Shown here in pieces: positions 1,695-37,324 of a stretch of 51,918 nucleotides of DNA. The DNA lies in NCBI GenBank assembly GCA_949299455.1, contig CASGAN010000009.1:1-51918 (forward strand). Reading direction: 5' to 3'. The position numbers and the translations under genes were made by a program. This DNA is from an uncultured Oscillospiraceae bacterium (lineage in GTDB: Bacteria; Bacillota; Clostridia; Oscillospirales; Ruminococcaceae). Every line of letters begins with the position of its first letter. Within the stretch, counting starts at the first letter, position 1. The notes under the pieces were generated by a model that made no database searches, had not been told where the DNA came from, and was given only the letters and a program-made list of their open reading frames with translations.

Positions 1695-1695
1695 A

Positions 1696-3326: not shown

Positions 3327-3339
3327 GAGGAGGTCTGGC

Positions 3340-4935
3340 GTGGATAAACAAGTGATTAACTTAACGATTTTCCTTATTAAGGATTATGTTCAAGAACTGA
3401 AGGACTGTCTTAAATCTCCAAGCTCACTTTCCTCTTCCAAGATAAAATCGCAGTTTGGATTAGATGGAGAAATCTATTATTGTGACAGCAATAAAAAAAT
3501 CCCCCGATGGAAACCATACTTAGATGAACTTTCAAATGAGACAATAGATATTTCAGAAAACGCATCAAATAAGGCCATTGTTCTTGCATATATTCAAAAT
3601 AGAATTATGGCAATTGTATTTGGATACGGGCGTTCATTTTTAAAAGAGGAGTGTATTGAACGCAATTTTGGCCTCAAGGTTGCGCTTAATACAATCAATC
3701 CTAACAAAATGCGTAGTATCAATGCAGCAACAATAGAGGATATGGTTGTTACAACGCAAAGGCAAGCAAGTTATAGCACTACTCAGGATGAATTTGGCCT
3801 GAATGTTACAAATGATATTATGAAAGGCCTTACAGGAGAACCGTATGATTCCGTCTACGGAAATCATATAAGCGGCAAAGATTCTTTAGTTGTATCTGTT
3901 TTTATGGAAATAACAGAACTCAAGGAAAAACTCAATCTCTATTACGCTGCCTACCAGGATGAGCGATACAAAAGAATAGGATTTGAATGGGTCGATAATG
4001 TTTCAGAAATAAGAGATTCCGTTCAATCAGAAGCTTTAGATTTTGAGTTAGCTCATGCAATAGAAAGTCGCCAAATTGATCATTTACATATTGCTCCACC
4101 AGAAACAACAGATTGGGATCGCATTATTGGTTTTTGTTATTCTGGAATAGGAAAGAAATTGGATGATGGCGAAAACTACAATCTCGAACTTGACTTAACT
4201 GAATATGTTGAAAAAATCAAGCCGAGCACAAATGTTTACCAGAAAATCCGTAGAGATAAACTATACGCTATGAATTCAGATGGTACTCCTTTTGCAATAT
4301 GCAGTATCTATGCAGCTCTTGTATTTCAAACAGAATATGAAGGGAAAAACTATATTCTTTGTTCAGGTACTTGGTATTATGTAGAAACATCTTTTTTCGA
4401 ACAGGTTAATAATTTCATCACAGCAAAAATTCCGATATCTGATGTAACTTTACCAGATTGTCCATTTGATAAAAATGAAGGCGCATATAATGAAATGGTT
4501 GCTAACAGTAATGCCGATTTTTGCCTTATGGACAGGAAATTACTCTCCGTCGAAAATGGGCCAAAACAAATAGAAGCGTGTGATATTTTTACTCGTGATA
4601 AAAAGATGATTCATGTTAAAAACAAAGGCCAGTCTGCACAATTAAGCCATCTTTTCTCCCAGGGGAAGGTATCCGCTGAGTGCTTTGTGAGCGATATGGC
4701 TTTTCGTAAGCAGGTTTCCGATATCGTAGAAGAAAAATTTGGTACCGCAGTTTTTGACTACACTCAAAAGCCTCAGTCTGATGAGTTCGAAATTGTATAT
4801 GCAATAATTGATACAAAAAGCTCCTCAATAGAAGCTAAACTCCCGTTTTTTAGTAAGGTAAATCTAATGATTACAGCACAAGAGTTAGACCGAATGCATT
4901 TTAGGTTTTCAGTTTGTTTTGTTCGAAAAGTTTAG
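3340..4935 (+). CDS. DUF6119 / TIGR04141 sporadically distributed protein
   Basis: A GTG at 3340 follows an exceptionally strong AGGAGGAGG RBS (3325-3333), giving 531 residues; longer in-frame starts fall inside vsr. The C-terminal third carries the family's signature region: IEACDIF, then a basic IHVKNKG and LSHLFSQGKVSAECF. Function is not established; the family is patchily distributed and often found beside restriction or other defence genes. Base composition is clearly more AT-rich than the preceding three genes, suggesting independent acquisition. It is 14 bp behind vsr and probably co-transcribed, so a defence-related role is plausible but inferred. Confidence 0.85.
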   Translation: MDKQVINLTIFLIKDYVQELKDCLKSPSSLSSSKIKSQFGLDGEIYYCDSNKKIPRWKPYLDELSNETIDISENASNKAIVLAYIQNRIMAIVFGYGRSFLKEECIERNFGLKVALNTINPNKMRSINAATIEDMVVTTQRQASYSTTQDEFGLNVTNDIMKGLTGEPYDSVYGNHISGKDSLVVSVFMEITELKEKLNLYYAAYQDERYKRIGFEWVDNVSEIRDSVQSEALDFELAHAIESRQIDHLHIAPPETTDWDRIIGFCYSGIGKKLDDGENYNLELDLTEYVEKIKPSTNVYQKIRRDKLYAMNSDGTPFAICSIYAALVFQTEYEGKNYILCSGTWYYVETSFFEQVNNFITAKIPISDVTLPDCPFDKNEGAYNEMVANSNADFCLMDRKLLSVENGPKQIEACDIFTRDKKMIHVKNKGQSAQLSHLFSQGKVSAECFVSDMAFRKQVSDIVEEKFGTAVFDYTQKPQSDEFEIVYAIIDTKSSSIEAKLPFFSKVNLMITAQELDRMHFRFSVCFVRKV

Positions 4936-8772: not shown

Positions 8773-8816
8773 AAAGCAAACAAAAACACCCCCGTGTGCT
8801 GCCACACGGGGGTGTT
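8773..8816 (-). terminator. Terminator of the Hdr/Flx/fumarate reductase operon
   Basis: A 14-bp stem (8785-8798 with 8803-8816, loop CTGC) is followed on the minus strand by TTTTTGTTTG. It sits 14 bp past the stop of the last operon gene. Confidence 0.9.
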
Positions 8817-8829
8817 CGTTACAGCCGAA

Positions 8830-9153
8830 TTATTCGGAAATCGCTGCCTGTGCTTCTCTCTGTTTGTCCAGACGAACGTTGCGGAAGTAGAGCGCCACGT
8901 CGATGGAAATTTCAACGAAGTTTAATACATAGAAGAACCAGCCGAGATAGAACAGCCAGTTTTCATTGCCGCCGCTCTCCGCAAACAGCATGAATTTACG
9001 GACAATACCAAAGATGTAGCCGATCAGCAGGAAAATCTCGAAGAACAAGCTTTTTCCTTTTGCGGTACGCGAAATCCACGATTTGCGGATCGAAATCGGC
9101 CACGACAAGCCAAAGCACAGAATCATCAGTGCTTCCAATAAATCAGTGATCAT
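8830..9153 (-). CDS. Small PQ-loop-like membrane protein, last gene of the energy operon
   Basis: The 107-residue protein has three predicted membrane segments (about 5-22, 36-55 and 66-90) and a charged C-terminus. The segment GLSWPISIRKSWISRTAKGKS resembles the proline-containing first helix and following basic loop of SemiSWEET/PQ-loop half-transporters. It has no histidine that could ligate haem, so it is not a FrdC/FrdD-type anchor. It is 28 bp downstream of the fumarate reductase flavoprotein gene and shares its terminator, implying a function tied to the operon, such as solute transport or membrane tethering, but this is inference. Confidence 0.6.
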   Translation of the reverse strand: MITDLLEALMILCFGLSWPISIRKSWISRTAKGKSLFFEIFLLIGYIFGIVRKFMLFAESGGNENWLFYLGWFFYVLNFVEISIDVALYFRNVRLDKQREAQAAISE

Positions 9154-9181
9154 AATTCAATATACCCCTTTTGTCAGTTGA

Positions 9182-10777
9182 TTACTTTCTGCGCGCGTAG
9201 TTCGGCAGCAGTTTCGGCGAAACAACATCGGTTTTGATGCCTGCTTCTGCCTGCTCTTTTGCAAATTTGTTGACGTGCTCCAGTGTCAGCGCACCGAGTG
9301 TGACGTCTTTCGATTTGCTCGAAGCGTTTTTGCCTGCGTTTCTGCCGAATACGATGATGTCGAGCAGCGAGTTGCCCATCAGACGGTTTCTGCCGTGGAT
9401 ACCACCAACAGCCTCGCCTGCAACGTACAGGTTCTCGATGTTTGTCATGCCGTCTGCTGTAATATCAAGTCCACCGTTTTGATAGTGCAGCGTCGGGTAT
9501 ACAAGGATCGGCTCTTTACGGATGTCGATGCCGTATTTGCCGAACATACGCATCATTGCCGGAATGCGTTTTTCGATCGTGCCTTCGCCGTTTTTGAGCT
9601 CGATCATCGGGGTGTCGAGCCATACGCCGATGCCGTCCGGTGTGTGCACGCCGTTACCACGGTCAGAGCACTCGCGGATGATCGATGCAGCCGAAACGTC
9701 ACGGGTTTCCAGCGGATGCATGAATGCTTCGCCGTTGACGTTAATCAGTTTTGCGCCCAGCGAACGAACTTTCTCGGTAACGAGTGCGCCGAAGATCTGC
9801 TCCGGATATGCAGCGCCGGTCGGATGGTACTGCAGGGTATCCGCATACAGCAGTTTTGCACCTGCACGATAGCCGAGCACCAGACCGTCTGCGGTTGCAC
9901 CGTAGTGGTTCGAAGTCGGGAAGCCCTGGTAATGCAGTCTGCCTGCACCGCCGGTTGCGATGATGACGGTTTTTGCGCGAGCAATCAAAATCTCATGGGT
10001 TTCCATGTTCATGAGAACTGCGCCTGCTGCTTTGCCGTTTTCGTCGAGAATGAGCTCGATTGCTGCGGTGAAGTCGACAACCGGAATACCGCGGTTCCAA
10101 ACCTCATCACGCAGGGTACGCATGATCTCTGCACCGGAATAGTCTTTTGCAGCGTGCATACGTTTTCTCGATGTACCGCCGCCGTGGGTGGTGATCATGA
10201 CGCCGTTTTCGTCTTTGTCAAATTCAACGCCCAGATTGTTGAGCCACTGGATTGCCTCCGGTGCCTCGTTGACGAGTTTATATAAAAGTTCCGGTTTTGC
10301 AGCAAAGTGACCGCCGCCGAATGCGTCCAGGTAGTGGATTGCCGGGGAGTCGTTTTCTTTGTCTGCTGCCTGGATGCCGCCCTCTGCCATCATGGTGTTT
10401 GCGTCACCGATGCGCAGTTTTGTGACGATCATTGCTTTTGCGCCGTTGTTGTCTGCTTCGATTGCAGCCGATGCACCTGCACCGCCGCCGCCGATGATTA
10501 AAACGTCTACGTCATAGTCGACTTTCGAAAGATCGATCTCAGCCGGATTGACGCGGCTGTTTGCCTGAAGCAGCTCAGCGAGTTCTGTCGGCACTTTTTC
10601 GCCTTTGTTTGCGCCGATCTGAAGCACTGCAAATTCGCCCTGTTTATAGTCCGGATGATATGTTGCAAGGAGAGTTTCTTTCTCTTCGGCAGTCATTCTT
10701 CTCGGCTCCAAAACCGCATTTGCACTTCTTGCTGCTTCCACTTTTTTCATGGACTCAAGCATTTCATTCGTGTACAT
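9182..10777 (-). CDS. frdA: Soluble-type fumarate reductase flavoprotein subunit
   Basis: A 531-residue flavoprotein of the FrdA/SdhA/NadB family. The FAD-binding dinucleotide fold starts at 93 (LIIGGGGAGASAA), followed by AEGGIQA, the HPTG substrate-domain motif and the GRNRLMGNSLLD catalytic-arginine segment. Two features are odd. An 88-residue N-terminal extension precedes the Rossmann strand, and the histidine that binds FAD covalently in membrane FrdA/SdhA is Asn127 here, as expected for non-covalent FAD. With the iron-sulfur partner and Hdr/Flx genes upstream and no haem anchor, it most likely reduces fumarate to succinate in the cytoplasm, comparable to methanogen TfrA. Other enoate substrates cannot be excluded. 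Confidence 0.85.
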   Translation of the reverse strand: MYTNEMLESMKKVEAARSANAVLEPRRMTAEEKETLLATYHPDYKQGEFAVLQIGANKGEKVPTELAELLQANSRVNPAEIDLSKVDYDVDVLIIGGGGAGASAAIEADNNGAKAMIVTKLRIGDANTMMAEGGIQAADKENDSPAIHYLDAFGGGHFAAKPELLYKLVNEAPEAIQWLNNLGVEFDKDENGVMITTHGGGTSRKRMHAAKDYSGAEIMRTLRDEVWNRGIPVVDFTAAIELILDENGKAAGAVLMNMETHEILIARAKTVIIATGGAGRLHYQGFPTSNHYGATADGLVLGYRAGAKLLYADTLQYHPTGAAYPEQIFGALVTEKVRSLGAKLINVNGEAFMHPLETRDVSAASIIRECSDRGNGVHTPDGIGVWLDTPMIELKNGEGTIEKRIPAMMRMFGKYGIDIRKEPILVYPTLHYQNGGLDITADGMTNIENLYVAGEAVGGIHGRNRLMGNSLLDIIVFGRNAGKNASSKSKDVTLGALTLEHVNKFAKEQAEAGIKTDVVSPKLLPNYARRK

Positions 10778-10792
10778 TGTTGCCTCTCTCCT

Positions 10793-11467
10793 TTACTTCT
10801 CGATTTCTCTTGTGTTATACAGTTCTTTGATCTCGTCGATCGGTTTCTGCATCAGCGCTTCGATCAGATCGACAAATTTGCCGTCTTTGATCTCCTGAAC
10901 ACGGTTTTCAAGGTGTTCGGATTTCGGCGCCAAGTATTTACCGGTCAGACGTCTTGCAAGCAGTGCAACGTGCGGATGCGAAATGCCTGCCGGGCAGCGG
11001 GAAGAACAAAGACCGCACATGACGCAGTCAAACGACTCTTCCGCACATTTTTCGTACTCGCCGCGCTGTGCATATGCAATGTACTGCATGACATCAAGAC
11101 CCTGCGGGCAGACTTTTGTGCAGGCATTGCAGCCGACACAGCTGTAGATCTCCGGATAGAGCTGCATCATGATCTGCTCGGTCGGACGAACTTTTTCAAT
11201 GTCATAGACTTCTTTGACCAGCGGGAAATACGGCAGTGTTGCCACATACATATTTTCCTCAACTTTTGTCTGACATGCAAGACAAGCTTTCAATTCACGC
11301 TCGCCTTTGATGCGGTAAACGGTTGCACAAGCACCGCAGAAGCCGTTGCGGCAGCCGCAGCCGCGCACCAGCTGATAGCCTGCATATTCAAGCGCACCCA
11401 TAATGGTGAGGTTTGCGGGCACTTCATACTGTTTGCCCATCAGAAAAACATGAACCATCTTTTCCAT
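10793..11467 (-). CDS. frdB: Fumarate reductase iron-sulfur subunit, FrdB/TfrB N-terminal type
   Basis: The 224-residue electron-transfer partner has an N-terminal plant-type [2Fe-2S] domain (cysteines near 37-39, 44, 47 and 62) and two [4Fe-4S] motifs, CVGCNACTKVC (110-120) and CVMCGLCSSRC (148-158). Unlike methanogen TfrB it lacks a C-terminal CCG (HdrB-like) domain; in this operon that function is supplied by the separate HdrB. Classical FrdB carries one [3Fe-4S] cluster near the quinone, whereas both cubane sites here have complete cysteine sets. It ends 15 bp before the flavoprotein start. Confidence 0.87.
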   Translation of the reverse strand: MEKMVHVFLMGKQYEVPANLTIMGALEYAGYQLVRGCGCRNGFCGACATVYRIKGERELKACLACQTKVEENMYVATLPYFPLVKEVYDIEKVRPTEQIMMQLYPEIYSCVGCNACTKVCPQGLDVMQYIAYAQRGEYEKCAEESFDCVMCGLCSSRCPAGISHPHVALLARRLTGKYLAPKSEHLENRVQEIKDGKFVDLIEALMQKPIDEIKELYNTREIEK

Positions 11468-11487
11468 TTCAGCACAACTCTCCTTTA

Positions 11488-12315
11488 TTAGTATTCGTTC
11501 GGAAGTTCATCGAGTTCATCAAAACGGAACACCGGGCCGTCTTTGCAGACGTATTTATCGCCGATGTTGCAGCGGCCGCATTTGCCGACGCCGCATTTCA
11601 TCCGAAGCTCCATCGTTGTGTATACCTGTGTTTCAGTAAAGCCAAGCTCTTTTAAGCCTGCCAGTGTGAATTTAATCATGATCGGCGGGCCGCAGAGCAG
11701 AACGGTTTTGTTTAAGTCCGGACTCAGTTCTTTGACATAATTCGGAACGAAGCCGACGTGGCCGTCCCATCCCTCTTCCTCACGGTCGATGGTGAGGTTT
11801 ACTTCGACGCCTGCGTCTGTCATCCACTCGTTGATGATTTCCTGGTAATCAACGAGGTCTGCTTTCGAACGGGAACCGTAGATGATCTGCACGCTGCCGT
11901 ACTGATCGCGTTTGTCGCGGACATAGTTGATGACCGAACGAAGCGGCGCTAAACCGATACCGCCGGCGATGAACAAAAGATCTTTGCCTTTTAATGCAGT
12001 TTCCACCGGGAATGCGTTGCCGTACGGACCGCGGACGGTGACCTGCTGGCCCGGCTCCATCATGTGAAGCCAAGTGGTCAGACAGCCGCATTTTTTGATG
12101 CTGAATTCCATGAATTCTTTGTTTGTCGGCGACGAAGTGATCGAAAACATCGCTTCACCGACACCCGGGATCGACAGCATCGCACACTGACCGGGCATAT
12201 GCTCAAACAGTTTGTTTCCGTCGAGGCCGACGACGCGGAACGTTTTGACATCCGGTGTATCAATGCGGATGTCCGTTACGACGCCGACTTTCGGAATCAA
12301 AGTTTCCTGAATCAT
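11488..12315 (-). CDS. flxA: FlxA-type NAD(P)H-binding flavoprotein subunit
   Basis: A 275-residue protein of the ferredoxin-NADP reductase/DHODH electron-transfer superfamily: N-terminal FAD-binding barrel (GQCAMLSIPGVGEAMFSITS), then a nucleotide-binding domain (LLFIAGGIGLAPLRSVI) and a C-terminal [2Fe-2S] motif with Cys241, Cys246, Cys249 and Cys257. In Desulfovibrio the FlxA homologue takes electrons from NADH and passes them through FlxB-D to HdrABC. It abuts flxB with no spacing. Anaerobic sulfite reductase B and hydrogenase gamma subunits share the fold, but the flxBCD-hdr context favours Flx. Confidence 0.88.
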   Translation of the reverse strand: MIQETLIPKVGVVTDIRIDTPDVKTFRVVGLDGNKLFEHMPGQCAMLSIPGVGEAMFSITSSPTNKEFMEFSIKKCGCLTTWLHMMEPGQQVTVRGPYGNAFPVETALKGKDLLFIAGGIGLAPLRSVINYVRDKRDQYGSVQIIYGSRSKADLVDYQEIINEWMTDAGVEVNLTIDREEEGWDGHVGFVPNYVKELSPDLNKTVLLCGPPIMIKFTLAGLKELGFTETQVYTTMELRMKCGVGKCGRCNIGDKYVCKDGPVFRFDELDELPNEY

Positions 12316-13344
12316 TTATGCTTCCTCCCCCAATGCTTTGATAACTTTTGCAATATTCATTGAAATCGGGCATTTTGTGAGGCACCGGCCGCATCCGACA
12401 CAGCTGTAGATGCCCTCGTTGTTCGACGGGTAGTACACAAGCTTGTGCATGAAGCGCTGACGGAACCGCTCCACCTGGGTAAGACGCGGGTTGCCGTGCG
12501 CCATACGGGTGAAGTCGGAATACATGCAGCTGTCCCAGCAGCGATAACGTTTAATGCCGTGGCCGGTATCAAAGTCGCGGATGTCATAGCACTGGCAGGT
12601 CGGGCAGACGAATGTGCACGAGCCGCAGCCAAGGCACGCTTCGGACAGGTCTTTCCAACGGTTCGAATCAAACAGTTTCAAGAGATTTTCCGGTTTGAAG
12701 TTCGAAAGATCAAGCGAGCCGAGCGGCAGTTTTTTGAGGATCTCTTTGACCTCTGCCTGCTGTGCTTTCACTGCCTCGTCATCGCTTTCTGCAAGCAGTT
12801 CGGAAACAGAGGAAAGGAATGCTTCACCTTTTTCGGTATTTGCCGAGAGATACAGGTTCTCGCCTGCAATCCAGCCGCTCACGTCGCCTGCCGGATTGGT
12901 CGGGTCAATGCCGAACACGGTGCAGAAGCAGGTTTCCTCCGGACGGGTGCATGCCAGTGTGACGATCACACCGTGATCGCGGCGGTTTTTATAGTAGGAG
13001 TCAACCGGTTCAACCAAGAAAACGCGGTCTAAAATGTCAAAGCTTCTTGCGTCGCAGGCACGCACGCCGAACACCACGAAATCCTCCGATTCGGTGCGGG
13101 TGTCGATGACTTCGATCGTTTTGCCTTCCATTTTGAAGTCGACCAGGTTCTCGGTCTGCGGGAAGAAGAAGTCTTTTGCACTTCTTGCGGTGTTGAGCGC
13201 GTTCGAAAGCGTCACACCTTCGTGCCAGACTTTATACTCTGCGTGGCCCGATGCTTCGTCGTCCACCGGCAGGTACAGTTTGCGGGTGCTTGCCACTGCC
13301 GCAAACAGATCGTTTAATTTGGAAACAGGAAGTGTAAACATCAT
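12316..13344 (-). CDS. flxB: FlxB-like 4Fe-4S dicluster protein
   Basis: The 342-residue protein has an N-terminal domain seen in anaerobic sulfite reductase A and hydrogenase beta subunits, with a CDARSFDILDRVF segment and CTRPEETCFC, then two C-terminal [4Fe-4S] motifs, CLGCGSCTFVCPTC and CVGCGRCLTKCP. It should relay electrons between FlxA and FlxC/D. Its stop is directly adjacent to the flxA start and its own start overlaps flxC by 4 bp, indicating tight translational coupling. Confidence 0.85.
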   Translation of the reverse strand: MMFTLPVSKLNDLFAAVASTRKLYLPVDDEASGHAEYKVWHEGVTLSNALNTARSAKDFFFPQTENLVDFKMEGKTIEVIDTRTESEDFVVFGVRACDARSFDILDRVFLVEPVDSYYKNRRDHGVIVTLACTRPEETCFCTVFGIDPTNPAGDVSGWIAGENLYLSANTEKGEAFLSSVSELLAESDDEAVKAQQAEVKEILKKLPLGSLDLSNFKPENLLKLFDSNRWKDLSEACLGCGSCTFVCPTCQCYDIRDFDTGHGIKRYRCWDSCMYSDFTRMAHGNPRLTQVERFRQRFMHKLVYYPSNNEGIYSCVGCGRCLTKCPISMNIAKVIKALGEEA

Positions 13345-14318
13345 TGTTTTCCTCCTCTTTCATAGACAATGCTCGGCTCGACGTCCTCAGTGGTGAACGT
13401 GTTGAGCGGTGCGCGCTCGTCTGCGTTCTCGCCTGCCTGATATTCGCCGTACAGCTCGTTGATGTCTTTGATGAATTTCCGGTTCAAAAGATGGAGCGGA
13501 ATGTTCTGCGGGCAGACACGCGAGCATTCGCCGCAGTCGGTGCAGCGTCCTGCCACGTGGAATGCACGGATGATGTGGAACATATTCTCCTCAAACGAAT
13601 CGGAAGCGCCTTTGTTGAATGCGCCGGACTGCTCATTGTCGAATACGCATTTTTCGCACGAGCAAGCCGGACATACGTTGCGGCATGCGTTGCAGCGGAT
13701 GCAGCGGGACAGCTCGTTTCTCCAGAATTCGAAACGCTCGTCCGGTGTCATCGCTTCAATTTTCTCCACCATGTCAAACCGGTGGTTGTCTGCAACAACG
13801 TCGCCCTCTTCGCCTAACAGCTCATCGTAAACGACGTGTTTTTTGCTCTTGCAGTTTGTGCAGCGTTCGCTCATTGCGTCCGCTTTGCTCATTGTGCTGT
13901 CGCCGTACAGAGTTTTGACGGTCACAGTTTCGCCGTCGCTTGTCATGCTGCAAATACCGGTCAGGCCGGTTGCTTTGACAGTGTCAACGTCGACTTTGCC
14001 GTCGCACGGAACGCCGATCACATACACGTTTTCACGCAGGATGCGGTGCTCTTTTAACAGCTGGCTGAAGCTGTAGGTGTCGCACGGTTTTAAGAATACG
14101 AGCGTTTTTCCCTCTTTTCTCGACTGTGCGATCATGTATTTCGAGAGATTGGCCTCGCACAGGTCGTTATACAAAAACGCGCTGTCGAGCTCCTCGGCAG
14201 TTGTGAACACGCCCGGAGTGATGTCATAATCGAATTCGCCGGCTTTCCAACCGACCACACGAGCAACTTCACCGCTTGCGAGCAGTTCTTTTGCGCGTTT
14301 GATCATTTCGCTTTGCAT
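13341..14318 (-). CDS. flxC: FlxC-like 4Fe-4S protein
   Basis: A 325-residue iron-sulfur protein with an N-terminal F420-hydrogenase-beta-like region (CDTYSFSQLLKEH; RCTNCKSKKHVVYDE) and two C-terminal cluster motifs, CIRCNACRNVCPACSC and CTDCGECSRVCP. It is homologous in layout to FlxB, consistent with an old duplication in the Flx family. It overlaps flxD by 16 bp; a second in-frame ATG at 14306 would reduce that overlap. Confidence 0.83.
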   Translation of the reverse strand: MQSEMIKRAKELLASGEVARVVGWKAGEFDYDITPGVFTTAEELDSAFLYNDLCEANLSKYMIAQSRKEGKTLVFLKPCDTYSFSQLLKEHRILRENVYVIGVPCDGKVDVDTVKATGLTGICSMTSDGETVTVKTLYGDSTMSKADAMSERCTNCKSKKHVVYDELLGEEGDVVADNHRFDMVEKIEAMTPDERFEFWRNELSRCIRCNACRNVCPACSCEKCVFDNEQSGAFNKGASDSFEENMFHIIRAFHVAGRCTDCGECSRVCPQNIPLHLLNRKFIKDINELYGEYQAGENADERAPLNTFTTEDVEPSIVYERGGKQ

Positions 14319-14749
14319 CTCAAGTCCTCCAATCTCTTGTTCTCGCCGAGTTTTGTGACGGTTGCCACAAAGTCATTCATCGTTGCGGCAAATTTTGCGC
14401 CCTCTGCCGCGGATACCCACTCGACACGGGTACGCTCTTTTTCAATGCCCAGATAGTCGAGCATCGAGAATAAAAGCGTCATTCTTCTTCTTGTATAGTA
14501 GTTGCCGGTGGTGTAGTGGCAGTCGCCCGGATGGCAGCCGCACAGGATGACACCGTCTGCACCGCGCTGGAACGCACGCAGGATAAACATCGGATTGACA
14601 CGGCACGAGCACGGTACGCGGATGATTTTGACGTCAGCCGGATATTGAAGACGGTTTGTACCTGCCAAATCGGCGCCTGCATACGAACACCAGTTGCAGC
14701 AGAATGCAACAATTTTCGGTTTGAATTCGTTTGTTTCTTTTACTTGCAT
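14303..14749 (-). CDS. flxD: FlxD / MvhD-like hydrogenase iron-sulfur subunit
   Basis: The 148-residue MvhD-family protein links electron donor modules to HdrA. Recognisable segments are CCNWCSYAGADLAG, VPCSCRVNPMFILRAFQRGADGVI and CGCHPGDCHYTTGN, which supply the [2Fe-2S] cysteines. In methanogens MvhD docks MvhAG to HdrA; here no NiFe hydrogenase subunits are present and FlxA-C replace them. It overlaps hdrA by 10 bp, matching the physical contact between these subunits. Confidence 0.92.
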   Translation of the reverse strand: MQVKETNEFKPKIVAFCCNWCSYAGADLAGTNRLQYPADVKIIRVPCSCRVNPMFILRAFQRGADGVILCGCHPGDCHYTTGNYYTRRRMTLLFSMLDYLGIEKERTRVEWVSAAEGAKFAATMNDFVATVTKLGENKRLEDLRCKAK

Positions 14750-16731
14750 ATTGCGTCAACCTCCGCCATGATCTGACTGTTCGAGAAGCCTTTAAGGTCC
14801 ATTGCGCCCGACGGACAAGCAACTGTACAAGCACCGCAGCCCTGGCAGACTGCTTCGTTGACGGATGCCACGCGGCGGATTGCAGTGGTACGGTCCGGCA
14901 TTCTGAACTCTTTGTCGGAATATGTGATCGCACCGTACGGACAAACTTTTTCACACGACGAGCAGCCGTTGCACATCAGCTCGTTTGCCTGTGCGACACA
15001 CGGGTTGCAGGTCAGTTTGTCTTTTGCAAGCAGGCCGATGACTTTTGCAGCGGCAGCACTTGCCTGCGATACGGTTTCCGGAATATCTTTCGGTCCCTGG
15101 CACACACCGGACAGGAAAATGCCGGCAGTCGGGCTTTCCACCGGACGCAGTTTCGGGTGCGCTTCGGTGAAGAAGTCGTTGGTATCCATGCTTGCGGTCA
15201 GCATGGTTGCAAGCGAACGTGCCGATTTGTCCGGCTCGATTGCAGCAGCCAGAACGACCAAGTCTGCATTGATGTGGAGCTGTTCGTTCGACAACAGGTC
15301 AGACGCCTGCACCATCAATGTACCGTCGGAACGCGGAACCACTTTGCCGACCATGCCTTTGATGTAGTGCACGCCGTATTCCTCAACAGCGCGGCGGTAG
15401 AACTCGTCGAAGTTCTTGCCCGGGGTACGCACGTCGATATAGAACACGTACACATCGGTATCCGGATATTTCTCACGGGTGAGCATTGCGTGTTTTGCGG
15501 TGTACATACAGCAGATCTTCGAGCAGTATGTTTTGCCGCAGCCCGAAGTGTCACGGCTGCCGACACACTGAACGAATACGATCGTGTGCGGATGTTTGCC
15601 GTCGGACGGGCGGAGCAGTGTGCCGGAAGTCGGGCCTGCTGCGTTGGTCAGACGCTCGAATTCAAGCGAGGTGATGACGTCCTTGCTCTGCGAGTAGGAG
15701 AACTCATCGAAATCGTCGAGTTTGATCGGGTTAAAGCCGGTTGCAACGACGATTGCGCCGTATTTTTCCTCGACGATGGTATCCTGCTGTTTGTAGTCGA
15801 TTGCGCCGACGGTGCAGAATTTCGAGCAGACGCCGCATTTGCCGTTTTTGAGCATGTTGCAGTAGTTTGCATCGATCGTTGCAACTTTCGGCACAGCCTG
15901 TGCAAACGGGATGTAGATGGCACGGCGGTTATCCATGCCCATGTTGAATTCGTTCGGCACGTTTTTGACCGGACATTTCTCGGTGCAGATGCCGCATCCG
16001 GTACATTTGTCCTCGTCGACATAGCGTGCTTTTTTCTTGATTTTCACGGTGAAGTTGCCGACAAAGCCTTTGACGTCTTCGACTTCACTGTAGGAATAGA
16101 TCTTGATTTTCTCGTTCTGTGCACAGTCGACCATTTTCGGTGTCAGGATACATGCCGCACAGTCGAGTGTCGGGAACGTTTTATCGATCTGGGTCATTTT
16201 GCCGCCGATGGTCGGCTGTTTCTCGACGATGTCGACCTCAAAGCCAGCCTCTGCGATGTCGAGTGCGGTCTGGATGCCGGCAATACCGCCGCCGATGACG
16301 AGCGCACGTTTGACAACCGGGCTTTCGCCTGCGGTAAGCGGTGCATTCAAGTGCACTTTTGCAACAGCCGCTTTGCCCAAAATGACTGCTTTTTCGGTTG
16401 CACTCCAGATATCTTTGTGAATCCACGAGCACTGCTCACGGATGTTTGCGATCTCCACCATGTAGGGGTTGATGCCTGCCGCCTGTGCCGCTTTGCGGAA
16501 GGTCGCCTCGTGCATACGCGGCGAACACGAACAGACGACAACACCGGTCAGTCCATATTCTTTAATGGAATCTTTAATCAGGTTTTGTCCCGCTTCGGAA
16601 CACATGTACTGATAATCCGTGGAGAAAACGACACCCGGCTCGCTTTTTAACGCTTCTGCAACGGCTTTGACATCAACGGTTGCCGCGATGTTTGTGCCGC
16701 AATGGCAGACAAATACGCCAATTTTCTGCAT
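14740..16731 (-). CDS. hdrA: Heterodisulfide reductase-like subunit A, electron-bifurcating flavoprotein
   Basis: The 663-residue length matches HdrA. Order: N-terminal domain with VCHCGTNIA and CSCSPRMHE (1-75), FAD Rossmann motif GGGIAGIQ (147-154), an inserted ferredoxin domain starting CTGCGICTEKC (243-253), a CSKICCMYTAKHA segment, then two C-terminal ferredoxin motifs (CNGCSSCEKVCP and CQGCGACTVACP). In characterised HdrA the single FAD splits an electron pair between ferredoxin, via the C-terminal clusters, and HdrC/HdrB. The operon supplies NADH input (Flx) and a likely second acceptor. A 639-residue open frame on the opposite strand is a shadow. Confidence 0.95.
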   Translation of the reverse strand: MQKIGVFVCHCGTNIAATVDVKAVAEALKSEPGVVFSTDYQYMCSEAGQNLIKDSIKEYGLTGVVVCSCSPRMHEATFRKAAQAAGINPYMVEIANIREQCSWIHKDIWSATEKAVILGKAAVAKVHLNAPLTAGESPVVKRALVIGGGIAGIQTALDIAEAGFEVDIVEKQPTIGGKMTQIDKTFPTLDCAACILTPKMVDCAQNEKIKIYSYSEVEDVKGFVGNFTVKIKKKARYVDEDKCTGCGICTEKCPVKNVPNEFNMGMDNRRAIYIPFAQAVPKVATIDANYCNMLKNGKCGVCSKFCTVGAIDYKQQDTIVEEKYGAIVVATGFNPIKLDDFDEFSYSQSKDVITSLEFERLTNAAGPTSGTLLRPSDGKHPHTIVFVQCVGSRDTSGCGKTYCSKICCMYTAKHAMLTREKYPDTDVYVFYIDVRTPGKNFDEFYRRAVEEYGVHYIKGMVGKVVPRSDGTLMVQASDLLSNEQLHINADLVVLAAAIEPDKSARSLATMLTASMDTNDFFTEAHPKLRPVESPTAGIFLSGVCQGPKDIPETVSQASAAAAKVIGLLAKDKLTCNPCVAQANELMCNGCSSCEKVCPYGAITYSDKEFRMPDRTTAIRRVASVNEAVCQGCGACTVACPSGAMDLKGFSNSQIMAEVDAICK

Positions 16732-16746
16732 TTGTTTGTCTCCTCC

Positions 16747-17133
16747 TTATTTTGTGTACTTGCGGAATGCGCTGACGATTGCCTGCTGCGGAAGTTCTTC
16801 GTCCAAAAGCTCTGGCAAATCGCCTTTTTTCATGTGGTTCTTGTCCTGCTCACGGATGACGGCCAGGCGCACTGCTTCGATCAGTTTTGCCGGCTGCACA
16901 TCACGCGGACACCGCTCCACACACGCAAAGCAGGTCAGACATTTATAAATGGAATCCGACGACAGAAGCGGTTCGATGTTGCCGCTCTCCACCATGTAAA
17001 CAAACTGGTGCGGATGATATTCCATCTCGTCATACGCCGGACAGGTTGCGGAACATTTGCCGCAGCGCATACATTTGCGGGCATTCACGCCGCTGATTCT
17101 GAGAATCAGCTCTTGTTTGTCCTGTTTTTGCAT
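16747..17133 (-). CDS. hdrC: Heterodisulfide reductase-like subunit C
   Basis: A 128-residue protein with two [4Fe-4S] motifs, CMRCGKCSATCP and CLTCFACVERCP, the HdrC pattern. It bridges HdrA and HdrB electrically. It has no membrane segment, so this is the soluble HdrABC type rather than HdrDE. It sits 13 bp after hdrB and 15 bp before hdrA. Confidence 0.94.
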   Translation of the reverse strand: MQKQDKQELILRISGVNARKCMRCGKCSATCPAYDEMEYHPHQFVYMVESGNIEPLLSSDSIYKCLTCFACVERCPRDVQPAKLIEAVRLAVIREQDKNHMKKGDLPELLDEELPQQAIVSAFRKYTK

Positions 17134-17146
17134 CTGCCGACCCTCC

Positions 17147-17932
17147 TTAATCTTTCACGCCGAGCGCCTCTGCCAGGAGCTCTGTGAAATAGTACACCGG
17201 CACGTCATAGCCGTCGGTGTTTTGATTCAAGTTGTAAAGGCACAGCGGACATGCAGTGATGAGCATATCTGCACCCATGTCTTTTGCATTTTCAAGCACT
17301 TTGCCGCTTCTCTTGTTGGCAAGGGCTTTGTCCTCAAGTGTGACATAGCCGCCGCAGCACTCGTTGCGCATCGGATAAATGACCGGTGTGCCGCCGATTG
17401 CACGGATGAAATCCTCCATGATTTTCGGATTTTCCGGATTGTCCATCTTTAACACTTTGCCCGGACGGAGCAGAAGGCAGCCGTAATATGCGCCGATTTT
17501 TTTGCCGGTGAACGGGTTTTTGACAAGCTCTTTGATCTTATCAAAGCCCACTTTGTCACGCAGCATCTCAAGATAGTGGATCACGTTTGTTTCGCCGTGA
17601 TATTCCTCAGAAAGCTCTAAATAGCGGTTTGCTTTGCCTGCGATCTCCTCGTCGGTTTTCATGTCGTTGTTGACTTGTTTCAACACATTATGACATGCCG
17701 AGCAGAGTGTCACAAGATCTTGTCCTGCCGCTTTTGCAGCAGCGAGCGCACGCACCGACGACAGCTTTGTTGCAATCTCGTCTTTTGCGATCGGATACAC
17801 ACCGCCGCAGCACTGCCAATCCGGAATCTCTTCGAGTGTGATGCCCAGTGCTTCAGCGCTTTTGCGGCCGTAGCGGTCCAAGTCTTTCGCTTTTGTTTTG
17901 AGCGTGCAGCCAGGATAATAACTTAAAATCAT
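17147..17932 (-). CDS. hdrB: Heterodisulfide reductase-like subunit B with two CCG domains
   Basis: A 261-residue protein with a duplicated CCG domain. The first repeat has YPGC (Cys9), WQCCGG and LCSACHN; the second has YYGCLL, NECCGG and ACPLCLYN. In methanogen HdrB these bind two noncubane [4Fe-4S] clusters that cleave the CoM-CoB heterodisulfide. Bacteria lack those cofactors, so the natural disulfide or protein acceptor here is unknown; DsrC is one proposed partner elsewhere but no DsrC gene is in view. The adjacent fumarate reductase is the obvious local candidate for electron delivery, by inference. Confidence 0.93.
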   Translation of the reverse strand: MILSYYPGCTLKTKAKDLDRYGRKSAEALGITLEEIPDWQCCGGVYPIAKDEIATKLSSVRALAAAKAAGQDLVTLCSACHNVLKQVNNDMKTDEEIAGKANRYLELSEEYHGETNVIHYLEMLRDKVGFDKIKELVKNPFTGKKIGAYYGCLLLRPGKVLKMDNPENPKIMEDFIRAIGGTPVIYPMRNECCGGYVTLEDKALANKRSGKVLENAKDMGADMLITACPLCLYNLNQNTDGYDVPVYYFTELLAEALGVKD

Positions 17933-17975
17933 GATTGCATTTCCTTTCTCATTTTCCTGCGGTTGCGTGCAGACC

Positions 17976-19352
17976 TCAGATCATCTGCTCCGGATGGAAC
18001 ACTTCGTCAAACCGCTCTGCGGTTAAAAATCCGAGTGCCACACACGCCTCTTTGAGGGAAATGTTTTCTTTATATGCTTTTTTCGCTGTTTTTGCAGCGT
18101 TTTCATAGCCGATGTACGGGTTAAGTGCGGTAACGAGCATCAGCGAGTTATGCAGGTTGTGGTGCATTTTCTCACGGTTTGCTTTGATGCCGACTGCGCA
18201 GTTGTTGTTAAACGAAACAATCGACTCAGCCAAAAGTCTTGCCGACTGCAAGAAGTTATAGATACAAACCGGCATGAAGACGTTTAACTCAAAGTTGCCC
18301 TGCGAAGCTGCCATGCCGACTGCAACGTCGTTGCCCATGACCTGAACAGCAACCATGGTGACTGCCTCACACTGTGTCGGGTTGACTTTACCCGGCATGA
18401 TCGAGGAGCCCGGCTCGTTTTCCGGAATGAAGATCTCGCCCAAGCCGTCACGCGGGCCGCTCGCGAGCCAACGGACGTCGTTTGCAATTTTCATCATGTC
18501 CGCAGCGAGTGCTTTGAGTGCGCCGTGTGCAAAAACGAGCTCGTCTTTGCTGGTGAGCGCGTGGAATTTGTTCGGTGCGGTCACGAATGTTTTGCCGGTG
18601 ATCTCGGAAACAGCTTTTGCGACCTCAACGTCGAAGCCTTTCGGGGTATTTAAGCCTGTGCCGACTGCGGTGCCGCCGAGTGCCAGTTCTTTTAACTCCG
18701 GCAGTGCGATCTCGAGCATTTTTTTGTCTTTTTCAAGCGACGAACGCCAGCCGCTGATCTCCTGTGTAAAGGAAATCGGGGTTGCATCCTGCAAGTGGGT
18801 ACGGCCGCTCTTTACGATGCCTTCGTTCTCTTTTTCAAGACGTTTGAAGGTGTCGATGAGCATATCGATTGCCGGGAACAATTTGTCCTCGATGGCAATG
18901 ACAGCCGAGATGTGCATTGCGGTCGGGAATGTGTCGTTCGACGACTGGCTCATGTTGATGTCGTCGTTCGGGTGCAGCAGTTTTTTGCCTGCGAGTTCGT
19001 TGCCGCGGTTTGCGATAACCTCGTTTGCGTTCATGTTCGACTGCGTGCCGCTGCCGGTCTGCCATACAACGAGCGGGAAGTGCTCATTGAGGCTGCCGCT
19101 CATGACTTCGTCACAAGCTTTTGTGATGACTGCGAGTTTTTCGTCGGTCATTTTTTCCGGTTTTAATGCATGGTTTGCAATCGCTGCTGCTTTTTTGAGC
19201 ACGCCGAATGCGTGGGTGATTTCGCGCGGCATGGTTTCGATGCCGATGCCGATTTTAAAGTTTTCGTGGCTGCGTTCGGTCTGTGCCGCCCAGTATTTGT
19301 CGGCAGGAACCTTTACTTCGCCCATGGAGTCATGTTCAATGCGGTATTCCAT
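17976..19352 (-). CDS. fumC: Class II fumarate hydratase
   Basis: A 458-residue oxygen-stable, iron-independent fumarase that interconverts malate and fumarate. Characteristic segments: TGSGTQSNMNANEVIANRG, HPNDDINMSQSSNDTFPTAMH, and the signature loop GSSIMPGKVNPT. In this operon it lies between malate dehydrogenase and the Hdr/Flx/fumarate reductase genes, so the expected flux is malate to fumarate. Aspartase shares the fold, but the sequence pattern and context favour fumarase. Confidence 0.96.
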   Translation of the reverse strand: MEYRIEHDSMGEVKVPADKYWAAQTERSHENFKIGIGIETMPREITHAFGVLKKAAAIANHALKPEKMTDEKLAVITKACDEVMSGSLNEHFPLVVWQTGSGTQSNMNANEVIANRGNELAGKKLLHPNDDINMSQSSNDTFPTAMHISAVIAIEDKLFPAIDMLIDTFKRLEKENEGIVKSGRTHLQDATPISFTQEISGWRSSLEKDKKMLEIALPELKELALGGTAVGTGLNTPKGFDVEVAKAVSEITGKTFVTAPNKFHALTSKDELVFAHGALKALAADMMKIANDVRWLASGPRDGLGEIFIPENEPGSSIMPGKVNPTQCEAVTMVAVQVMGNDVAVGMAASQGNFELNVFMPVCIYNFLQSARLLAESIVSFNNNCAVGIKANREKMHHNLHNSLMLVTALNPYIGYENAAKTAKKAYKENISLKEACVALGFLTAERFDEVFHPEQMI

Positions 19353-19383
19353 CGGAAATCTCTCCTTACATTGTTTTTATAAA

Positions 19384-19427
19384 CCCGCATTGGCGCTGCA
19401 GAAAATCCACAGCGCCAACACTGCGGG
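19384..19427. repeat. Intercistronic hairpin between mdh and fumC
   Basis: A 9-bp perfect stem (19390-19398 with 19410-19418) is extended by an outer CCCGCA/TGCGGG pair (19384-19389 and 19422-19427). On the minus strand it is followed by TTTATAAAAA, a poor T-tract. It may act as a partial terminator or RNA processing site setting the mdh to downstream gene ratio. Confidence 0.6.
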
Positions 19428-19464
19428 AAGCCTCAAACTTTCATTTGAAGTTCCCGTTTGTTTT

Positions 19465-20412
19465 TTAGATATCGAGCTGTTTGATGACGTCTTTTAAGCA
19501 GTTTGCGCTCTTTTGCATCAGCTCTTTTTCATGGTCGGTCAGCGGTGCGATGATCTTGCCTTTGATGCCGGTTCTGCCAACGATGGTCAGCATGCTCATG
19601 CAGACGTCGTCAATGCCGTATTCGCCGTGCATCATGGAGGAAACGGTCATGGTGGTATCGGTGCCGCTCAAGATGGATTTGCAGATGTGGCTGACCGAAA
19701 CAGCAACCGCATAGAAGGTTGCGCCTTTTCTTGCGATGATTTTTGCGCCCGATTTGCGGATGTAGTTCTCCACTTCATCGAGGTTGATTTCCGGCATGAT
19801 TTTGCCCTGGTCGGTCAGACATGCGCTGTACTGGTCGATCGGCACGTTCGAGATGTTGCCCAAGGACCACGGAACGAACGAAGAATCGCCGTGCTCGCCG
19901 AACACATATGCGTGAACGTTCTGCTGGCTGATGTTATAATATTCAGCCAAACGCGAACGCAGACGTGCGGTATCCAAAATAGTGCCCGAACCGATGATGC
20001 GCTCTTCCGGCAGACCGGATGTTTTGCAGAACTGATAGGTCAGAATATCGACCGGGTTCGATACGATGACATAGATTGCATTCGGTGCGTATTTGACAAG
20101 CTCCGGAATGATTGTTTTTGTGATGTTGACGTTTGTCTGGGTGAGGTCCAAACGAGTCTGGCCCGGTTTTCTTGCAACACCCGAGGTCAGCACGACGATG
20201 TCAGAATCCTTTGCATCCTGATAGCTGCCCGCATAGATGGAAACCGGGGAACAAAACGGTGTGCCCTGACGGATGTCGAGCGCTTCGCCCAGAGATTTCT
20301 CGGCATTGATATCGACCATAACGATCTCCGAGGTGATGCCGCTGACTGCCAGTGTGTAGGCAATCGTTGAACCGACGCTGCCTGCGCCGACAATAGTAAT
20401 TTTACTGCTCAT
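19465..20412 (-). CDS. mdh: Malate dehydrogenase, LDH-like subfamily
   Basis: A 315-residue NAD-dependent 2-hydroxyacid dehydrogenase. The fold is LDH/MDH: GAGSVGS (9-15), Asp34 after the second strand for NAD preference, DTARLR with the catalytic Asp/Arg and GEHGDS with the catalytic His. The specificity position reads Arg81 in GVARKPGQTR, where true lactate dehydrogenases have Gln (GAPQKPGETR). Arg at this site pairs with the extra carboxylate of oxaloacetate, so malate dehydrogenase is preferred over lactate dehydrogenase. Position as first gene of an operon with fumarase and fumarate reductase agrees. Confidence 0.87.
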   Translation of the reverse strand: MSSKITIVGAGSVGSTIAYTLAVSGITSEIVMVDINAEKSLGEALDIRQGTPFCSPVSIYAGSYQDAKDSDIVVLTSGVARKPGQTRLDLTQTNVNITKTIIPELVKYAPNAIYVIVSNPVDILTYQFCKTSGLPEERIIGSGTILDTARLRSRLAEYYNISQQNVHAYVFGEHGDSSFVPWSLGNISNVPIDQYSACLTDQGKIMPEINLDEVENYIRKSGAKIIARKGATFYAVAVSVSHICKSILSGTDTTMTVSSMMHGEYGIDDVCMSMLTIVGRTGIKGKIIAPLTDHEKELMQKSANCLKDVIKQLDI

Positions 20413-20569: not shown

Positions 20570-20740
20570 AATATTTTGGATTCCGCCACGTTTCGCGCCG
20601 AAACTTTTTATTTTTTTTCGGTTTTTTTCGTATGGATGCGCCAACCCATGTACCGTGCACCACTTTTTTCCTGTTTGAATAGGATAAATCAAACAGCCTG
20701 CTGTTTTTTTACGTTTGATCATTCAGGAGGTTTCATATTC

Positions 20741-20980
20741 ATGAATACGATTGCACTCTGCGATTTAAAACCGGGACATCACGGCACCATCTGCGCCATG
20801 CCGAACGGCGGCTCGTTTTCCCGCCGGCTCGAAAGCTTAGGCTTTACAAAAGGCGCATGCGTCACCTGCCTGCAAACCGCCAAAAGCGGCGATCCGTCTG
20901 CCTTCTGGGTGCGCGACACCGCCGTTGCACTGCGAAAGTGCGACGCAAAAGATATTGCCGTTTCCGTTTTGAATGCATAA
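20741..20980 (+). CDS. feoA: Ferrous iron transport protein A
   Basis: A 79-residue SH3-like FeoA: LKPGHHGTI near the N-terminus, RRLESLGFTKGACV in the middle and the ALRKCDAKDIAV end are typical. ATG 20741 is chosen for the AGGAGG at 20725-20730; a longer in-frame extension has no RBS. It is a cytoplasmic accessory of FeoB and lies 40 bp upstream of it. Confidence 0.9.
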   Translation: MNTIALCDLKPGHHGTICAMPNGGSFSRRLESLGFTKGACVTCLQTAKSGDPSAFWVRDTAVALRKCDAKDIAVSVLNA

Positions 20981-21020
20981 AACCCGCACCGGCTTCGGTG
21001 CACAAGGAGGCGTTCTCTGC

Positions 21021-36524: not shown

Positions 36525-36527
36525 CGT

Positions 36528-37292: not shown

Positions 37293-37324
37293 GTTTGTTC
37301 TCCCCAATTCGGCGTTTTTCCTCA

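What the first reader, a model, noticed from the sequence alone, without database searches (positions are those of the whole stretch)
8830..20412. Single operon joining oxaloacetate-to-succinate reduction to an HdrABC-FlxABCD bifurcation module
Twelve same-strand genes with mostly overlapping or near-zero spacing encode malate dehydrogenase, fumarase, HdrBCA, FlxDCBA, an FrdB-like and an FrdA-like protein and a small membrane protein, bounded by one promoter and one terminator. FlxABCD-HdrABC is known as an NADH-driven system with an unresolved physiological disulfide acceptor in many anaerobes. Here the acceptor could be fumarate: NADH oxidised by FlxA, with electrons split by HdrA between ferredoxin and fumarate via HdrB/FrdB. 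That would be an energy-conserving soluble fumarate reductase analogous to, but organised differently from, methanogen TfrAB. The enzyme families are established; the coupling is inference.
Basis: partly seen in the sequence, partly recalled or inferred. Interest (0 to 1): 0.85.

Follow-up and report, generated by a model that had tools for sequence, protein, structure and literature searches.

The report
Fumarate-linked electron-splitting succinate operon
One gene cluster of a gut-type bacterium looks built to turn oxaloacetate into succinate while using the energy of that step to charge a strong electron carrier; relatives carry the same cluster, and the idea was already proposed for one of them but has not been shown in the test tube.

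Summary
In detail: twelve minus-strand genes, 20412 to 8830, read mdh-fumC-hdrBCA-flxDCBA-frdBA-small protein, with gaps of -16 to +112 nt and a strong terminator. No promoter beyond chance was found.

Comparison supports the coupling. In 391 genomes of the class (taken as Clostridia) FrdA occurs in 54, HdrA in 57, both in 53. In 46 of 46 loci whose contig reaches far enough, all nine hdrBCA-flxDCBA-frdBA genes stand together. In 24 FrdA-positive genomes HdrB is the only CCG protein in 23; none has DsrC over cut-off or a Sdh_cyt anchor. FrdB lacks TfrB's CCG domain, so direct HdrB-to-FrdB transfer is likelier than a thiol shuttle. FrdA, FrdB and HdrB together match the cofactor pattern of E-type fumarate reductase.

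The idea is not new: it was proposed for Pseudoclostridium thermosuccinogenes in 2019-2020. Outside the class, 12 of 20 frdA loci show no hdr gene, and 4 of 38 genomes have no HdrA hit, so FrdAB can have other donors. Ferredoxin coupling is unmeasured in everything I read.

The parts
19465..20412 (-). mdh: LDH-fold malate dehydrogenase (315 aa), probably oxaloacetate to malate with NADH
   Evidence: NCBIfam L-LDH-NAD 345.7 bits; Arg81 opposite the Gln of LDH 4m1q, Arg in 69 of 69 distinct copies; the Gln102/Arg102 specificity rule is recalled
17976..19352 (-). fumC: class II fumarase (458 aa)
   Evidence: TIGR00979 716 bits, cut-off 664.75
17147..17932 (-). hdrB: two CCG domains, ten cysteines for two non-cubane clusters (261 aa); about equally like HdrB and SdhE
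   Evidence: PF02754 twice; TIGR03288 142.0 bits and SdhE NF042965 133.3 bits, both under cut-off; ten Cys in 96 of 96; five HdrB sequences in the PDB search
16747..17133 (-). hdrC: two [4Fe-4S] motifs (128 aa)
   Evidence: Fer4 families; seven of eight cluster Cys 95 of 95, the eighth 89 of 95
14740..16731 (-). hdrA: full-length flavoprotein, candidate bifurcating FAD (663 aa)
   Evidence: NF040770 HdrA2 797.5 bits, cut-off 1100; 5odc chain A 695 bits over residues 3-660
14303..14749 (-). flxD: MvhD/FlpD-like linker (148 aa)
   Evidence: PF02662 188.8 bits
13341..14318 (-). flxC: Fe-S protein (325 aa)
   Evidence: Fer4 families; eight dicluster Cys 112 of 112
12316..13344 (-). flxB: HydB/AsrA-like Fe-S protein (342 aa)
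   Evidence: PF17179 104.5 bits; NF040829 172.2 bits, under cut-off
11488..12315 (-). flxA: NAD(P)H-FAD-[2Fe-2S] oxidoreductase, HydG/AsrB type (275 aa)
   Evidence: PF00175, PF10418, PF00970; four cluster Cys 120 of 120
10793..11467 (-). frdB: [2Fe-2S] plus two [4Fe-4S] motifs, no CCG domain (224 aa)
   Evidence: the eight [4Fe-4S] Cys 122 of 122; twelve cluster Cys kept in 20 of 20 rows of the phylum set, the window included
9182..10777 (-). frdA: fumarate reductase flavoprotein without the FAD-binding His, with an N-terminal extension of about 87 residues (531 aa)
   Evidence: TfrA NF004900 345.6 bits, cut-off 718; seven active-site residues 126 of 126, Asn127 in 125 of 126; best fold match E. 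coli FrdA 1kf6
8830..9153 (-). small putative membrane protein (107 aa), no known family; sits where many relatives carry a YidE/AspT-type antiporter
   Evidence: no Pfam or NCBIfam hit; position and relatives; membrane nature judged by eye
8784..8817 (-). intrinsic terminator
   Evidence: 15-pair stem with T-rich tail

Best explanation
The operon is an oxaloacetate-to-succinate branch whose last enzyme is a soluble FrdAB fed by NADH through Flx and Hdr. Most likely route: NADH gives hydride to FlxA; electrons pass through FlxB/C/D to the FAD of HdrA; HdrA splits them, one going to ferredoxin and one through HdrC to HdrB, then straight into FrdB and the FAD of FrdA, where fumarate becomes succinate. 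HdrB would do the job that SdhE does in E-type fumarate reductases and that the fused CCG domain does in TfrB. Net: 2 NADH + fumarate + 2 Fd(ox) gives succinate + 2 NAD+ + 2 Fd(red). Reduced ferredoxin could then drive Rnf (an RnfC is encoded in this genome) or a hydrogenase. Shown here: gene content, order, co-occurrence, cofactor ligands, no second CCG protein, no DsrC or Sdh_cyt partner in the genomes searched. Inferred: the physical complex, the HdrB-FrdB contact, the bifurcation and its stoichiometry.
For: FrdA in 54 and HdrA in 57 of 391 genomes of the class, both in 53; Fisher p = 1.5e-59 without correction for kinship. Nine-gene core present in 46 of 46 loci whose contig reaches far enough; in one the order is permuted but the set is kept. 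A fumarase in view in 95 of 139 loci: class II in 76, class I in 19, never both (L115 and L118 are one place). Outside the class three loci keep only hdrC-hdrB-frdB-frdA without hdrA and flx nearby (L241, L242, L245), pointing to HdrBC as the direct partner of FrdAB. In 24 FrdA-positive genomes picked for completeness HdrB is the only CCG protein in 23; DsrC over cut-off 0, Sdh_cyt anchor 0. HdrA is full length against 5odc. FrdA active site invariant, FAD-His site Asn; FrdB second [4Fe-4S] pattern and HdrB ten-Cys motif, as described for Wolinella SdhABE. PEPCK in 22 of the 24, RnfC over cut-off in 14 of the 24 including this one. Standard free energy about -49 to -33 kJ/mol per fumarate (NADH and fumarate potentials seen, ferredoxin at -420 to -500 mV assumed).
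Against: No biochemistry in anything I read. Outside the class 12 of 20 fetched frdA loci have no hdr gene recognised in view (L238 lies close to a contig start), and 4 of 38 such genomes have no HdrA hit, so FrdAB can use another donor. RnfC is under the cut-off in 10 of 24 genomes, so the use of the ferredoxin is not uniform. HdrB keeps every cysteine for disulfide chemistry, which a pure relay need not. Co-occurrence partly reflects shared descent. mdh is in view in only 76 of 139 loci. The FrdB model was poor (mean pLDDT 66.8; best fold match E = 9.4e-4), so no docking argument could be made.
Confidence: 0.68

Rival explanations
1. A soluble NADH:fumarate reductase that uses the Flx-Hdr subunits only as a wire: both electrons go to fumarate and no ferredoxin is reduced, as I recall for the five-subunit enzyme of Hydrogenobacter thermophilus.
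For: The same gene set would be seen. hdrC-hdrB-frdBA clusters without hdrA exist. A Blautia luti paper drew a NADH-dependent fumarate reductase in a theoretical pathway, though its assay used methyl viologen; its frdAB was not compared with the window's.
Against: HdrA is full length with its flavin and ferredoxin domains, and no locus of the class with enough contig lacked it; a plain wire would not need it. PMC7282089 cites an H2 effect that its authors say fits ferredoxin coupling.
Confidence: 0.18
2. Tfr-like thiol shuttle: Hdr reduces a small or protein disulfide with NADH, and FrdAB separately oxidises the thiol to reduce fumarate.
For: HdrB keeps all ten cysteines in 96 of 96 copies; FrdA's best NCBIfam match is TfrA.
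Against: FrdB has no CCG domain, and in 23 of 24 genomes HdrB is the only CCG protein, so FrdAB has no known thiol-oxidising part. No DsrC over cut-off in 24 genomes.
Confidence: 0.07
3. Mere co-regulation: FrdAB has its own donor, and Hdr-Flx is a separate NADH-ferredoxin-disulfide enzyme made at the same time for redox balance.
For: frdBA without hdr nearby outside the class and without any HdrA hit in G491, G494, G712 and G792.
Against: In the class the two are together in each of the 46 loci with enough contig, also where the order is permuted (L118), and FrdA there spans 23 family codes. The partner searches made found none other: no second CCG protein in 23 of 24, no DsrC over cut-off and no Sdh_cyt in 24.
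Confidence: 0.05
4. The system runs backwards, oxidising succinate with reduced ferredoxin to make NADH.
For: Hdr-type bifurcation is reversible in principle (general knowledge).
Against: FrdA lacks the FAD-binding His in 125 of 126 copies; in mutants reviewed in PMC2680327 loss of covalent FAD ended succinate oxidation. PEPCK, fumarase and transporter-like neighbours fit succinate formation.
Confidence: 0.02

Closest known systems
'Succinate operon' of Pseudoclostridium thermosuccinogenes (PMC7282089, passages; preprint 10.20944/preprints201912.0288 known to me only from its reference list)
   Same: Fumarase, Flx-Hdr, fumarate reductase and a hypothetical protein in one operon; the authors already assumed ferredoxin-linked fumarate reduction
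   Different: The window has an LDH-fold malate dehydrogenase at the head, not listed in that operon. Sequences were not compared directly
tfrAB interspersed with flxABCD-hdrABC and korABCD in reductive TCA clusters of Gammaproteobacteria (PMC6315080, passages)
   Same: A Tfr-like fumarate reductase with Flx-Hdr, suggested to form a complex
   Different: Autotrophic setting with korABCD and ATP citrate lyase; here a fermentative succinate branch
Hdr-Flox and fumarate reduction in Desulfovibrio alaskensis G20 (Meyer 2014; title only, in the reference list of PMC5861303)
   Same: Links fumarate reduction with Hdr-Flox and Rnf in pyruvate fermentation
   Different: Paper not read; whether the enzymes are one complex there I cannot say
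FlxABCD-HdrABC of Desulfovibrio vulgaris (Ramos 2015, reference only)
   Same: Same seven-subunit NADH-side module
   Different: Partner there is DsrC (recalled); no DsrC over cut-off in the 24 genomes searched, a fumarate reductase instead
E-type fumarate reductase SdhABE/MFR of Wolinella succinogenes (PMC2680327, passages)
   Same: Non-covalent FAD, second [4Fe-4S] in the B subunit, ten-cysteine third subunit related to Hdr
   Different: MFR is exported, has a hydrophobic SdhE and oxidises quinol; here the third subunit is also the HdrB of an Hdr-Flx
Thiol:fumarate reductase TfrAB of methanogens
   Same: FrdA is closest to TfrA in NCBIfam; FrdB and HdrB each match a part of TfrB
   Different: TfrB fuses the CCG domain; here it is a separate HdrB
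Soluble NADH-dependent fumarate reductase of Hydrogenobacter thermophilus (recalled, not read)
   Same: Soluble, NADH-driven, several subunits
   Different: Not known by me to bifurcate; not compared here

Membership tests
FlxABCD-HdrABC | Full-length HdrA with inserted and C-terminal ferredoxin motifs | tested here: met
   (5odc, residues 3-660, 695 bits); NCBIfam HdrA2 797.5 bits is under its cut-off of 1100
FlxABCD-HdrABC | HdrB with two complete CCG cluster motifs | tested here: met
   PF02754 twice; ten Cys in 96 of 96
FlxABCD-HdrABC | FlxA NAD(P)H/FAD protein and MvhD-like FlxD | tested here: met
FlxABCD-HdrABC | NADH-driven reduction of ferredoxin and a disulfide | not testable with these tools
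   needs enzyme assay
Thiol:fumarate reductase TfrAB | TfrA equivalog score | tested here: not met
   345.6 bits against cut-off 718
Thiol:fumarate reductase TfrAB | CCG domain fused in TfrB | tested here: not met
   no CCG in the 224-aa FrdB
E-type fumarate reductase (SdhABE/MFR) | No His for covalent FAD | tested here: met
   Asn127 in 125 of 126, His in one, L178
E-type fumarate reductase (SdhABE/MFR) | Second [4Fe-4S] pattern in subunit B and ten-Cys subunit E | tested here: met
   pattern described
E-type fumarate reductase (SdhABE/MFR) | NCBIfam MFR flavoprotein and SdhE equivalog scores | tested here: not met
   223.4 against 1100 and 133.3 against 500 bits
Canonical quinol:fumarate reductase | Membrane anchor of the Sdh_cyt family | tested here: not met
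   0 of 24 genomes; E. coli-type FrdC/FrdD families were not searched
L-lactate dehydrogenase | Gln at the specificity position (rule recalled) | tested here: not met
   Arg81, 69 of 69, although the NCBIfam LDH cut-off is passed
P. thermosuccinogenes succinate operon | fum + flx-hdr + frd in one operon | tested here: met
   against the description; no direct sequence comparison
Hydrogenobacter soluble fumarate reductase | Its five subunits | not tested
   recalled only; one search listed no held paper on the enzyme itself

The most novel reading that the evidence does not exclude
In this class of Clostridia the Hdr-Flx modules of this type are dedicated to fumarate, not to a disulfide: HdrB has become the E-subunit of a complex II-like enzyme, giving one soluble 'bifurcating complex II' (FlxABCD-HdrABC-FrdAB) that conserves energy in succinate formation by gut Oscillospiraceae, Ruminococcus flavefaciens included.
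Probability: 0.55. Interest if true: 0.72.

Novelty: new member of a known kind. Interest (0 to 1): 0.52.

Why it matters
Succinate is a fermentation product of gut and rumen Clostridia such as R. flavefaciens, and in the 24 operon-bearing genomes searched no Sdh_cyt anchor was found. If this complex couples fumarate to ferredoxin reduction, it gives such bacteria an ion-motive gain through Rnf or extra H2 and changes ATP and hydrogen budgets in rumen and gut models. It also offers a definite acceptor for Flx-Hdr in organisms without a recognised DsrC. A cultured species with the operon, R. flavefaciens FD-1 (L202), makes the question testable now.

Tried and rejected
Thiol shuttle and DsrC as acceptor: tested by CCG and DsrC searches and set low (one DsrC match under the cut-off, in G217). 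Plain L-lactate dehydrogenase for the first gene: set aside because of Arg81. Quinol-type fumarate reductase: no Sdh_cyt anchor in 24 of 24; E. coli-type FrdC/FrdD were not searched. An apparent exception, L115 without flx, was an effect of where I cut the locus; the wider stretch L118 has all flx genes. Of the four HdrA-only genomes, G072 is 62% complete and its contig ends inside flxA (L122); G062, G076 and G104 carry more distant HdrA (44-50% identity) with no frdA, hdrB or fumarase match in the stretch read. FrdB structure: weak model and poor fold matches, not used. FrdA model (mean pLDDT 76.4, pTM 0.81) matched E. coli FrdA first; in the 60 PDB sequences shown no best stretch begins before residue 82, so the role of the N-terminal extension is open. 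A complex could not be folded with these tools. The small membrane protein gave no family at E up to 1. Papers opened without use for the question: PMC6776011 and PMC8671834 (passages).

Rows dropped before counts: loci L115 and L119-L122, ORFs covering under 90% of the query and identical sequences were left out. In one search I used 24 of the FrdA sequences of the class, 20 loci of the phylum set and the window. The 24 genomes were picked by me for completeness out of the 54 FrdA-positive ones. Neighbourhoods were read for 20 of the 41 FrdA matches that are not the window's own. In one search I searched 38 of the 40 other FrdA-positive genomes, leaving out G580 and G782 (about 40% identity over part of the protein). 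'Present' means a BLAST match over 40 bits on the frdA strand, so a gene cut by a contig edge or in two pieces still counts.
Full report
WHAT IS THERE. The minus strand from 20412 to 8830 holds twelve genes in the order mdh, fumC, hdrB, hdrC, hdrA, flxD, flxC, flxB, flxA, frdB, frdA and a 107-residue putative membrane protein. Family searches support every name except the last, which matched nothing. Gaps run from -16 to +112 nt; all starts are ATG and by eye most have a Shine-Dalgarno-like sequence. A 15-pair terminator-like stem with a T-rich tail follows at 8817-8784.

THE FIRST GENE. NCBIfam names it L-lactate dehydrogenase above its cut-off. The alignment with the LDH of 4m1q shows Arg81 where that LDH has Gln, and Arg is kept in 69 of 69 distinct operon copies. 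By the recalled Gln102/Arg102 rule this points to malate dehydrogenase, which also fits its place beside fumarase.

HOW CONSTANT THE LINK IS IN THE CLASS. In an even draw of 391 genomes of the class, FrdA (E up to 1e-70) occurs in 54 and HdrA (E up to 1e-90) in 57. The overlap is 53; G110, 75% complete, has FrdA alone, and G062, G072, G076 and G104 have HdrA alone. Fisher's exact test gives 1.5e-59, without correction for kinship. I fetched 58 frdA loci from 57 genomes (the 53 other FrdA-positive sample genomes and 4). The nine genes hdrBCA-flxDCBA-frdBA are present in 45, eleven stop at a contig edge, L117 is the second fragment of one genome, and L115 proved complete when a wider stretch was fetched as L118. 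In L118 the order is fumarase-frdBA-hdrBCA-flxDCBA: the set is kept while the order changes. Of 80 named loci (the best 80 of 584 confirmed stretches) 56 are complete and 24 stop at an edge; several of these are the same contigs as in the first set. Named carriers include MAGs from chicken, goat, sheep and cattle guts and the named strain Ruminococcus flavefaciens FD-1 (L202).

PATHWAY NEIGHBOURS. Among 139 frdA-bearing loci, 76 carry class II fumarase, 19 carry a two-gene class I fumarase (415 and 288 bits in the one copy tested, L104), none carry both, and 44 show neither in view; mdh is in view in 76 (L115 and L118 are the same place). A YidE/AspT-type antiporter, or a DASS symporter in L114, often follows frdA; in the window's own group the small membrane protein takes that place. 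In 24 FrdA-positive genomes picked for completeness, PEPCK of the ATP type is in 8 and of the GTP type in 14 over cut-off, 22 in all; this genome has the GTP type. RnfC passes its cut-off in 14 of the 24, this genome included.

COFACTOR ANATOMY. FrdA keeps His198, Arg204, His318, Glu335, Arg338, His431 and Arg465 in 126 of 126 distinct copies; the site of the FAD-binding His is Asn in 125 of 126 and His in one. That these are the catalytic positions I take from recalled E. coli FrdA numbering and the alignments. FrdA's predicted fold matches E. coli FrdA best. FrdB has one [2Fe-2S] and two [4Fe-4S] motifs and no CCG domain. HdrB keeps all ten CCG cysteines in 96 of 96 and scores alike against HdrB (142.0 bits) and SdhE (133.3 bits), under both cut-offs. 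PMC2680327 (passages) describes this combination, non-covalent FAD, second [4Fe-4S], ten-cysteine subunit related to Hdr, in Wolinella SdhABE, and reviews mutants in which loss of covalent FAD ended succinate oxidation. So FrdA-FrdB-HdrB reads as an E-type fumarate reductase core whose third subunit is at the same time the HdrB of an Hdr-Flx.

WHICH PARTNER. In 23 of the 24 genomes HdrB is the only CCG protein at E up to 0.001; the exception, G217, is 11% contaminated. DsrC reaches its cut-off in 0 of 24, with one weaker match in G217, and Sdh_cyt gives no match in 24. FrdAB therefore has no known thiol-oxidising part and no anchor of that family, and direct transfer from HdrB is the simplest route.

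RESULTS AGAINST. In 398 genomes of the phylum, 41 match FrdA, this genome included; two of them match only at about 40% over part of the protein. Among 20 fetched loci (19 genomes), L243, L246 and L248 have the full set, L237 and L247 have Hdr variants, L241, L242 and L245 have hdrC-hdrB-frdB-frdA without hdrA and flx nearby, and the other 12 have no hdr gene recognised in view, one of them (L238) close to a contig start. HdrA is encoded somewhere in 34 of 38 of these genomes; G491, G494, G712 and G792 have no hit. FrdAB is thus modular and must have other donors there. On a quick FrdA tree the Hdr-Flx label needs 4 changes against 13.9 for shuffled labels, so the link was gained or lost more than once. 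HdrBC staying with FrdAB where HdrA and Flx are absent from the cluster is, in my reading, the best clue that HdrBC touches FrdAB.

WHAT IS KNOWN. PMC7282089 (passages) describes a 'succinate operon' in P. thermosuccinogenes with fumarase, Flx-Hdr, fumarate reductase and a hypothetical protein, about fourfold up under CO2 limitation though not significantly for every subunit, and assumes ferredoxin-linked fumarate reduction after a 2019 preprint that is not held. PMC6315080 (passages) suggests that tfrAB interspersed with flx-hdr forms a complex in reductive TCA clusters. The reference list of PMC5861303 holds a 2014 title on endogenous fumarate reduction and Hdr-Flox in Desulfovibrio alaskensis (paper not read). 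In the ten searches of the held library I saw in the listings, and in the passages I opened, no enzyme assay of this complex and no description of the operon across gut Clostridia; subscription papers are mostly absent from that library. PMC8092306 (one passage) saw high fumarate reductase transcripts in Fibrobacter but not in two ruminococci, which may mean the genes were not recognised or not expressed. PMC7174568 (passages) cites succinate production by R. flavefaciens on cellulose. The Blautia luti paper (passages) measured fumarate reductase with methyl viologen and drew NADH as donor only in a theoretical pathway.

VERDICT. A new member of a system already proposed. Electron flow from NADH through Flx-Hdr to fumarate is likely; ferredoxin coupling is likely but unmeasured.

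Noticed in passing
window 20726-23078 (+): FeoA and FeoB ferrous iron transport genes diverge from the operon's upstream end.
   Followed up: no
window 44463-49421 (-): 1652-residue GH85 endohexosaminidase-like protein with F5/8C, Big_2 and FIVAR domains; a 1578-residue ORF lies antisense to it.
   Followed up: no
G457, G503, G670, G693 (hdrA hits): Each of these hdrA frames holds one in-frame TGA, possibly a selenocysteine HdrA; not tested.
   Followed up: no
L241, L242, L245: hdrC-hdrB-frdB-frdA clusters without hdrA or flx nearby: perhaps a stand-alone FrdAB-HdrBC enzyme of unknown donor.
   Followed up: partly
L232 (G792), L233 (G494), and G712: frdBA in genomes with no HdrA hit; in L232 a 1152-residue ORF that by eye looks like pyruvate carboxylase lies upstream. 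Donor unknown (G712's neighbourhood was not read).
   Followed up: partly
L178: The only FrdA of 126 with His at the FAD site, which might allow covalent FAD.
   Followed up: no
L239: frdBA with Fe-S and membrane proteins upstream and, by eye, sucCD-like genes downstream: perhaps a different electron input.
   Followed up: no
L240 (G514): Second FrdA copy of one genome, with no frdB match beside it.
   Followed up: no
window 8830-9153 (-): Small putative membrane protein of no known family replaces the AspT-type antiporter of many relatives; might take part in succinate export.
   Followed up: partly
window 35067-37430 (-): Orn/Lys/Arg decarboxylase next to an S-adenosylmethionine decarboxylase: polyamine genes.
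   Followed up: no
window 528-4935 (+): DNA cytosine-C5 methylase (528-1694) and a DUF6119 protein (3268-4935); relation to each other not examined.
   Followed up: no
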